Positions 2,991 to 3,642 of a DNA stretch of 64,000 nt are shown in pieces. Position 1 is the stretch's first letter. Every line of letters starts with the position of its first letter. The stretch is from Jannaschia maritima (GTDB taxonomy: Bacteria; Pseudomonadota; Alphaproteobacteria; Rhodobacterales; Rhodobacteraceae): the NCBI RefSeq assembly GCF_030973515.1, contig NZ_JARGZA010000001.1:124001-188000 (forward strand), written 5' to 3'. Made by a program: the position numbers and the translations under genes. Below the pieces are notes generated by a model. That model saw nothing but the letters and a program-made list of their open reading frames with translations, made no database searches and was not told the DNA's origin.

Positions 2991-3329
2991 CTAACGCTCC
3001 ACGACCCCGATCGCGTCCATCATCGCCGCGAACGCGATCCGGTCGGCGTCCGGGGTCGTCGCGCGTCCAACGACGATAGCATCGAACCGTTCGCGCAGTG
3101 CCGTCTTCTCCTCGCCCTTGCAATCGTTCCAGGGCCGGTTCTGCAACGCCATCTCGAGGACGTAGAACCCTATGAAATGGGGGCGGGTGCCCGCGGCGAT
3201 CAGGGAGGCATAGGCGGCGTCCGCGCCGGCCCGGCGGAACGCGTCGACCGTGCCGAGCCCCACGCCGGCCAGCGCCTCGCCAAGGGCGGGGCCGATGTTG
3301 CGCAGGGTCGTAACGGAATCGCCGGACAT
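2991..3329 (-). CDS. TfoX C-terminal-domain protein
   Basis: A 112-residue protein consisting only of a TfoX/Sxy C-terminal domain (helix-hairpin-helix-like). The N-terminus TTLRNIGPALGEALAGVG matches the conserved 'L.NIGP..E..L..vGI.t...l...Ga' pattern, followed by an aromatic-rich FIGFYVLEMALQNRPWND segment. In gammaproteobacteria the full TfoX acts in competence control; single-domain alphaproteobacterial relatives have no settled function. The ATG at 3329 was chosen over an upstream start (3416) because the conserved domain begins at once. It faces proA tail to tail, and the CCUCCUCCC small RNA lies just upstream on the same strand. Confidence 0.8.
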   Translation of the reverse strand: MSGDSVTTLRNIGPALGEALAGVGLGTVDAFRRAGADAAYASLIAAGTRPHFIGFYVLEMALQNRPWNDCKGEEKTALRERFDAIVVGRATTPDADRIAFAAMMDAIGVVER

Positions 3330-3379
3330 GGAACCACCGTCCCATCCGGGCGGCATCGGTTCAACGAAAATCACGAAAG

Positions 3380-3460
3380 CGACCCCGCCCTGGGAGGAGG
3401 TAGGACGGGGCCGCATGTTTCTCGGCGACCGGATCAGGGAGGAGGAAGACCCGGTGCCTC
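3380..3460 (-). ncRNA. Candidate CCUCCUCCC ('cuckoo'/CcsR-like) small RNA
   Basis: On the minus strand two hairpins stand in tandem, each exposing CCTCCTCCC in its loop. The first (about 3458-3424) pairs GGC-ACCGG with CCGGT-C-GCC around the loop copy at 3445-3437. The second (3410-3383) pairs CCCCG plus CC/GG around the loop copy at 3400-3392, and is followed by a T-containing stretch that could end transcription. Two stem-loops each presenting CCUCCUCCC define the cuckoo family of Rhodobacteraceae small RNAs, including CcsR1-4 of Rhodobacter. Those are often linked to a DUF1127 gene, which is absent here. Exact ends and promoter are unknown. Confidence 0.65.
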
Positions 3461-3642
3461 GATGTCCCGACAGTTAAGCTGCACCGCGGCGCCATCAATG
3501 CTGCATCTGCGAAAAACGGGTCCTTCGGCGGGAAGAACACGAATTCGCACGAATGTTTCCCATCGGCGCGACCAGACGAACGAAACGGGATCCGCATTCG
3601 GCCTGTTTGGCGGGCAAGTCGACTACGACGCGGCCCTCCGTG
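3461..3642. other. Non-coding remainder between small RNA and SMR gene
   Basis: Together with the small RNA this forms a gene-free stretch of more than 300 bases (3330-3642). The open frames crossing it show no family motif and no good ribosome binding site. It probably holds the promoter of the small RNA on the minus strand, but I could not place a convincing -35/-10 pair. Confidence 0.4.

What the first reader, a model, noticed from the sequence alone, without database searches (positions are those of the whole stretch)
3380..3460. CCUCCUCCC-loop small RNA upstream of a TfoX-domain gene, without DUF1127
Two neighbouring minus-strand hairpins each display CCTCCTCCC in the loop. This is the hallmark of the cuckoo/CcsR small RNA family of Rhodobacteraceae, which acts by presenting anti-Shine-Dalgarno-like loops. 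Members are usually found near DUF1127 genes; here the neighbours are a TfoX-domain gene and an SMR transporter, so this could be a relocated member with different control.
Basis: partly seen in the sequence, partly recalled or inferred. Interest (0 to 1): 0.7.

Follow-up and report, generated by a model that had tools for sequence, protein, structure and literature searches.

The report
Small RNA likely tied to PHB
This is a small regulatory RNA conserved in the marine genus Jannaschia that shows two loops able to cover ribosome-binding sites on other messages, and its promoter suggests that it is switched by carbon storage (PHB) rather than by stress.

Summary
Two minus-strand hairpins (3379-3414, 3424-3458) each show CCUCCUCCC in the loop. 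They lie upstream of a TfoX_C gene in 16 of the 16 genus (Jannaschia) genomes that have that gene, and stem 2 is kept by paired changes. It is an extra anti-Shine-Dalgarno RNA, not a moved one: the DUF1127-linked array is still in the same genome. It resembles Rfam ar14 (45.1 bits, cut-off 58.8) and CcsR1 (20.3, cut-off 65.3) and passes neither. New here is the promoter, TTTCTGCRNNTGCA-N3-TTGACC-N3-CYGCRNYGCAGCTTA, with a PhaR-type box (YGCRNYGCR, 15 of 16) between -35 and -10, as in the phasin promoters of all 20 genus genomes. DUF1127-array promoters carry another conserved element, absent here. Proposed mechanism: PHB granules titrate PhaR, the RNA is made, and its loops block mRNAs with a GGGAGGA Shine-Dalgarno. 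There are 115 such sites (8 for the reversed pattern). Of 83 ORFs examined, 27 are transporter solute-binding proteins and one is acetoacetyl-CoA reductase, a PHB-synthesis enzyme. No transcript, PhaR binding or target has been tested, and by a matrix from phasin promoters the window's own box scores poorly. New variant of a known kind.

The parts
3502..3511 (-). Box 1, CGCAGATGCA (YGCRNNYGCR, spacing one longer than the PhaR consensus)
   Evidence: Conserved in 15 of 16 genus promoters
3493..3498 (-). -35 element, TTGATG here, TTGACC in most relatives
   Evidence: Alignment of 16 promoters; the sigma-70 scan itself found no site
3480..3488 (-). Box 2, CGCGGTGCA, PhaR-type YGCRNYGCR
   Evidence: 15 of 16 promoters; with the -35 it is the only such site in the window, 0 in 100 shuffles; 6.7 bits and about seventh rank in 64 kb with a phasin-promoter matrix
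3471..3476 (-). Proposed -10, TAACTG, 16-bp spacer
   Evidence: Inferred from the alignment
3376..3464 (-). Small RNA, limits as in the ar14 match; ends not mapped
   Evidence: Rfam ar14 match 3376-3464
3424..3458 (-). Hairpin 1, loop motif at 3437-3445
   Evidence: Fold; inner pairs vary together (partly circular)
3379..3414 (-). Hairpin 2, loop motif at 3392-3400; may also act as terminator (weak T run after it)
   Evidence: Fold; 7 of 12 pairs changed on both sides; terminator-like scan hit ending at 3376
2991..3329 (-). TfoX_C gene, start at ATG 3329 (a longer frame opens at 3416)
   Evidence: PF04994; relatives align from residues 1-6 of this start

Best explanation
A trans-acting small RNA of about 90 nt, made from its own promoter, that presents two CCUCCUCCC (anti-Shine-Dalgarno) loops. 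Shown by sequence: two hairpins kept across the genus, a fixed place upstream of TfoX_C, and a conserved promoter unlike that of the DUF1127-linked arrays.
For: 16 of 16 TfoX_C-bearing genus genomes keep the hairpins; 17 of 20 genus genomes have the RNA; stem 2 covaries. Promoter box YGCRNYGCR in 15 of 16; phasin promoters have two such boxes around a TTG -35 in 20 of 20 genomes, and phaR is in 20 of 20. TTGA-N5-CYGCRNYGCAGC occurs in 41 of 357 held loci, all of them loci of this RNA, many overlapping. Published PhaR consensus and two boxes flanking the -35 of phaP1/phaP2, and PhaR binding at the sRNA gene mmgR in S. meliloti (PMC12542648, passages). None of 16 promoters has the array-type elements, against 19 of 19 array promoters in the genus. 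GGGAGGA-N4-10-ATG: 115 against 8 reversed; 27 of 83 ORFs are solute-binding proteins against 1 of 45 window genes, Fisher p 3e-5.
Against: No transcript, binding or target data. The window's own box scores 6.7 bits against 24.7-32.3 for the phasin training sites, about seventh in 64 kb; orthologues 6.7-22.7, G208 0.4. Box 1 has the wrong spacing for the published consensus. The sigma-70 scan finds no promoter and the T run after hairpin 2 is weak. The strong Shine-Dalgarno set would be open to the DUF1127-linked RNAs too, and may only mark highly expressed genes; the control is small and from one region. The Shine-Dalgarno of the reductase was not checked in other species.
Confidence: 0.55

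Rival explanations
1. A second cuckoo-type RNA whose promoter is read by another factor (a LysR-type regulator such as LsrB, an unknown TGC/GCA-binding protein, or a stress sigma factor); PHB plays no part. Action by the loops is as above.
For: Weak matrix score of the window's box; box 1 spacing differs from the PhaR consensus; relatives of this kind answer to RpoHI/RpoHII (CcsR, PMC10253847 passage) or LsrB and NtrC (NfeR1, PMC10746234 passages).
Against: The LsrB-type TGCR-N6-GCAT plus TGTGCRNNYGCRG arrangement is in 19 of 19 genus array promoters and in 0 of 16 promoters of this RNA; box 2 keeps the R and Y degeneracy of the PhaR consensus.
Confidence: 0.28
2. A cis-acting leader of the TfoX_C transcript (attenuator or RNase site) rather than a free RNA; the loops act on the downstream genes or on RNA decay.
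For: Always on the same strand upstream of TfoX_C where that gene is present; hairpin 2 is followed by a weak T run.
Against: G208 keeps the RNA without a TfoX_C match; the distance to TfoX_C differs much, about 50 nt here and 200-400 nt in relatives, with a small ORF in between; exact anti-Shine-Dalgarno loops are typical of trans-acting kin.
Confidence: 0.14
3. Chance hairpins in a G+C-rich spacer.
For: High G+C; two copies of the motif are within chance for the window.
Against: Only close pair in the genome; kept in 17 of 20 genus genomes with paired changes.
Confidence: 0.03

Closest known systems
CcsR1-4 / cuckoo RNAs of the DUF1127-linked CIN1 locus (Rhodobacter sphaeroides; Rfam RF02791)
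   Same: Adjacent hairpins with CCUCCUCCC loops; the same genome has such a locus too
   Different: No DUF1127, own promoter with another element, two hairpins only, RF02791 score 20.3 against 65.3
ar14 / NfeR1 of Rhizobiales (Rfam RF02344)
   Same: Best Rfam match (45.1 bits, E 3.3e-7); same loops; predicted targets largely transporters (PMC10746234 passages)
   Different: Below the cut-off of 58.8; two hairpins, not three; no LsrB-type box in the 16 promoters
MmgR (ar8) of Sinorhizobium meliloti
   Same: sRNA with an anti-Shine-Dalgarno loop whose promoter holds a PhaR (AniA) site, tied to PHB (passages)
   Different: Another RNA family; no ar8 among the ten matches

Membership tests
Cuckoo RNAs | 2 to 4 adjacent hairpins, each with CCUCCUCCC in the loop (family description recalled; similar wording in PMC3927594 and PMC10746234 passages) | tested here: met
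   Two hairpins, exact motif in both loops in the window; in 11 of 16 genus members both are exact
Cuckoo RNAs | Acceptance by the published thermodynamic matcher | not testable with these tools
   The matcher is not on hand and the paper is not held
CcsR1 (RF02791) | Rfam gathering score 65.3 | tested here: not met
   20.3 bits
CcsR / CIN1 locus | Co-transcribed downstream of a small DUF1127 gene | tested here: not met
   No DUF1127 frame in the 3.3-kb locus L129; it is elsewhere in the genome
CcsR / CIN1 locus | RpoHI/RpoHII promoter | not testable with these tools
   Reported for R. sphaeroides (PMC10253847 legend); the array-type promoter elements are absent in 0 of 16 found
ar14 (RF02344) | Rfam gathering score 58.8 | tested here: not met
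   45.1 bits, E 3.3e-7; 6 of 11 relatives of this RNA scanned match at E 0.01 or better, 34.8-49 bits
ar14 / NfeR1 | Three hairpins | tested here: not met
   Two hairpins in all 16 folds
PhaR-controlled sRNA (MmgR-like control) | YGCRNYGCR box at the promoter | tested here: met
   15 of 16 including the window, but a weak matrix score in the window
PhaR-controlled sRNA (MmgR-like control) | PhaR binding and response to PHB | not testable with these tools
   Needs EMSA and mutants

The most novel reading that the evidence does not exclude
A PHB-sensing RNA arm: PhaR, titrated by storage granules, controls an anti-Shine-Dalgarno RNA that represses solute-binding proteins and acetoacetyl-CoA reductase, closing a feedback loop on carbon storage. 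In Jannaschia it stands beside the DUF1127-linked array, with the same kind of targets but another trigger; similar operator-plus-hairpin loci occur in at least two other genera (L233, L234).
Probability: 0.42. Interest if true: 0.7.

Novelty: new variant of a known kind. Interest (0 to 1): 0.52.

Why it matters
If true, one loop code (CCUCCUCCC) is driven by two separate signals in one cell: the DUF1127-linked array (stress-induced in its studied relatives) and carbon storage through PhaR. That gives a direct test of how anti-Shine-Dalgarno RNAs with the same loops divide their work, and it parallels the PhaR-MmgR link of S. meliloti with an RNA of another family. The link between GGGAGGA Shine-Dalgarno sequences and solute-binding proteins would bear on all such RNAs in the family.

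Tried and rejected
A relocated CIN1 element: rejected, the array is still present. Chance: rejected. Composite hit L230 is chance: it starts in the 3' end of a DUF1127 gene. L211 and L228 first looked like relatives with PhaR-type control; one search shows that both carry the TGCTGCATRGCRGCA element of the DUF1127-linked promoters, and they lie next to an mrp-like gene (L211 also next to a uvrD-like gene), so I read them as array loci without DUF1127. L228 (= L234) still has a TGCACTGCA box 19 nt upstream. No related RNA at E 0.001 in 74 of 75 non-Jannaschia TfoX_C loci; L059 has 24.3 bits (one search kept 80 of 113 relatives). Five genes with 9-nt matches (GGGAGGAGG before ATG) gave no coherent set. 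NCBIfam names neither the TfoX_C protein nor the two small proteins tried. In the held library the searches (listings) showed no paper that I could recognise as reporting this RNA; the 2015 cuckoo paper is not held, so mention there cannot be excluded.

Mended after it: solute-binding count 27 of 83 (before, 26 by summing families); the control recounted in three parts (one of 26 families in the last part not shown); loop counts; array-promoter counts; the phasin identity; absence of DUF1127 in L233 and L234.

Full report
Check of the observation. The two CCTCCTCCC copies are at 3392-3400 and 3437-3445 on the minus strand. As a count this is within chance for the window (29 of 100 shuffles), and the motif is not enriched in the genome (78 copies, reversed pattern 109). 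But among the 78 it is the only same-strand pair within 60 nt, where 0.05 is expected. The strand folds into two hairpins with the motif unpaired (z -3.07). Downstream is a gene with the TfoX C-terminal domain only, upstream an SMR transporter gene.

Where it comes from. The best named relatives of the TfoX_C gene are Jannaschia species, and loci of the window's own genus show the same sequences (for example L130 and L019, L142 and L066).

Conservation. Of 20 genus genomes 16 have the TfoX_C gene, and all 16 have the two hairpins upstream on the same strand. The exact 9-mer is in both loops in 11 of 16 (loop 1 in 14, loop 2 in 13). Model R1, built from these 16, also finds the RNA in G208, which has no TfoX_C match (57 bits), making 17 of 20. 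G212 has no match, and G213 and G214 only weaker ones (28.1 and 39.8 bits) next to their DUF1127 genes. Hits to the 16 are by construction. J. formosa (L022, 85.2 bits) is not among the training rows; L019, L020, L040 and L066 repeat training species. Of 75 non-Jannaschia TfoX_C loci only L059 gives a match below E 0.001 (24.3 bits).

Structure. RNAalifold keeps stem 2 with 12 pairs, 7 of them changed on both sides in at least one sequence. Stem 1 was not recovered from the plain alignment. Taking each sequence's own fold, the inner five pairs are formed in 96% of cells against 79% when 3' arms are shuffled between species, 0 of 2000 shuffles as good (partly circular, since the pairs come from the folds). 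Mean unpaired probability of the motif is 0.99 or more in loop 1 and 0.84 or more in loop 2.

Known families. Rfam ar14 is the best match (45.1 bits, E 3.3e-7), below its cut-off of 58.8; CcsR1 has 20.3 against 65.3. Of 11 relatives of this RNA scanned, 6 match ar14 at E 0.01 or better (34.8-49 bits) and 5 do not; none of the 15 sources of that call passes a cut-off. The same genome has the usual locus, a DUF1127 gene followed by a run of hairpins (C45:44131-44669). With R1 over 394 family genomes 240 have a match at 1e-7. Of the 28 loci from other genera that this call returned, 26 have DUF1127 upstream; the exceptions are L211 and L228. So the rule that such RNAs go with DUF1127 holds, and this locus departs from it.

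Promoter. The 16 upstream regions share TTTCTGCRNNTGCA-N3-TTGACC-N3-CYGCRNYGCAGCTTA. Box 2 fits YGCRNYGCR in 15 of 16 and box 1 fits YGCRNNYGCR in 15 of 16. The published S. meliloti PhaR motif is WNWD2NYGCRNYGCRNH2WNW; two copies flank the -35 of phaP1 and phaP2, and PhaR binds the promoter of the sRNA gene mmgR (PMC12542648, passages). PMC10888616 passages give NGCN3GC[GA]N3 for Bradyrhizobium and TGC repeats for Paracoccus denitrificans and Rhodobacter sphaeroides. In Jannaschia two such boxes flank a TTG -35 upstream of phaR in 20 of 20 genomes (17, 3 more), with box 2 in the -35/-10 spacer as here. The gene behind them in the window's genome is phasin-like (PF09361, 21.5 bits, E 2.7e-4, below the cut-off of 24.9). 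TTGA-N5-CYGCRNYGCAGC is found once in the window, at this promoter (0 in 100 shuffles), and in 41 of 357 held loci, all loci of this RNA, many overlapping. Against this: with a matrix from the phasin boxes the window's site has 6.7 bits (training sites 24.7-32.3) and about seventh rank in 64 kb; the orthologues have 6.7-22.7, G208 0.4, and L140 was mis-anchored by the script.

The DUF1127-linked promoters are different. TGCR-N6-GCAT followed within 10-45 nt by TGTGCRNNYGCRG is in 19 of 19 genus loci and 52 of 58 family loci (some of the 58 are the same place twice), and in 0 of 16 promoters of this RNA (sequences). The first part is the LsrB box reported for nfeR1, TGCA-N6-GCAT (PMC10746234, passages), exact in 14 of 19 and 42 of 58. 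The two RNA systems of one cell thus have separate promoters.

Outside the genus. Operator plus two motifs was found in 5 of 394 family genomes, and in none of them for the reversed pattern among the rows listed: two Jannaschia; L230, which starts inside a DUF1127 gene and is chance; and L233 and L234, which have PhaR-like boxes just upstream and no DUF1127 frame in the held 3.1 kb. L234 is the L228 locus and also has the array-type element, so it may be an altered array locus.

Targets. A complement of UCCUCCC placed as a Shine-Dalgarno (GGGAGGA-N4-10-ATG) occurs 115 times in the genome, the reversed pattern 8 times. Of the 100 places listed, 96 went into one set; 83 ORFs have 80 aa or more. 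By Pfam 27 of 83 are solute-binding proteins: DctP 8, SBP_bac_1 8, Peripla_BP_4 5, TctC 3, NMT1_3 2, NMT1 1; L326 and L327 are one gene, of which only L326 counts. In 45 genes called in the window by a rough G+C rule there is one, a DctP (one family of the last call is not shown); Fisher p 3e-5. The control is small and from one region, and strong Shine-Dalgarno sequences may simply mark highly expressed genes. One such gene is acetoacetyl-CoA reductase (L279, GGGAGGAGACCGGGACATG; TIGR01829, 356.5 bits, cut-off 302.1). For NfeR1 most candidate targets are ABC transport systems (PMC10746234, passage). The same mRNAs would be open to the DUF1127-linked RNAs.

Mechanism. Most likely PhaR represses the RNA and PHB relieves it; the loops then cover strong Shine-Dalgarno sequences of uptake proteins and of the reductase. 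The RNA, its place and its promoter pattern are shown by sequence. PhaR binding, the direction of control and the targets are inferred. A leader function for the TfoX_C gene is not excluded.

Noticed in passing
L130, L131, L133, L135, L137, L139, L140, L142, L143 and L188, between the RNA and TfoX_C (L188 without TfoX_C); absent from the 50-nt gap in the window: A small proline-rich ORF of about 30-40 codons ending in (R/K)F(T/S/I)DWA(S/A)I. Similar endings lie shortly before TfoX_C in 17 of 75 non-Jannaschia loci (regex). NCBIfam gave no name to the two tried.
   Followed up: partly
Upstream of DUF1127 in L235-L253 and of 52 of 58 family loci (L099-L128, L202-L229): A strongly conserved promoter element, TGCR-N6-GCAT then TGTGCRNNYGCRG, of which the first part matches the LsrB box reported for nfeR1 in S. 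meliloti: a hint that DUF1127-linked anti-Shine-Dalgarno RNAs share a LysR-type regulator across orders.
   Followed up: partly
L211 and L228: Two loci of other genera with the array-type promoter element and two anti-Shine-Dalgarno hairpins near mrp-like genes but without a DUF1127 frame.
   Followed up: partly
Genome of the window, 83 ORFs with GGGAGGA-N4-10-ATG: 27 of 83 are ABC, TRAP or tricarboxylate-transporter solute-binding proteins, so this Shine-Dalgarno form seems to mark uptake genes.
   Followed up: partly
G000 C45:44131-44669 (L235): The DUF1127-linked array of this genome has at least six hairpins whose loops are mostly shortened to UCCUCCC; its best ar14 score, 38.1 bits, is lower than that of the window RNA.
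   Followed up: no
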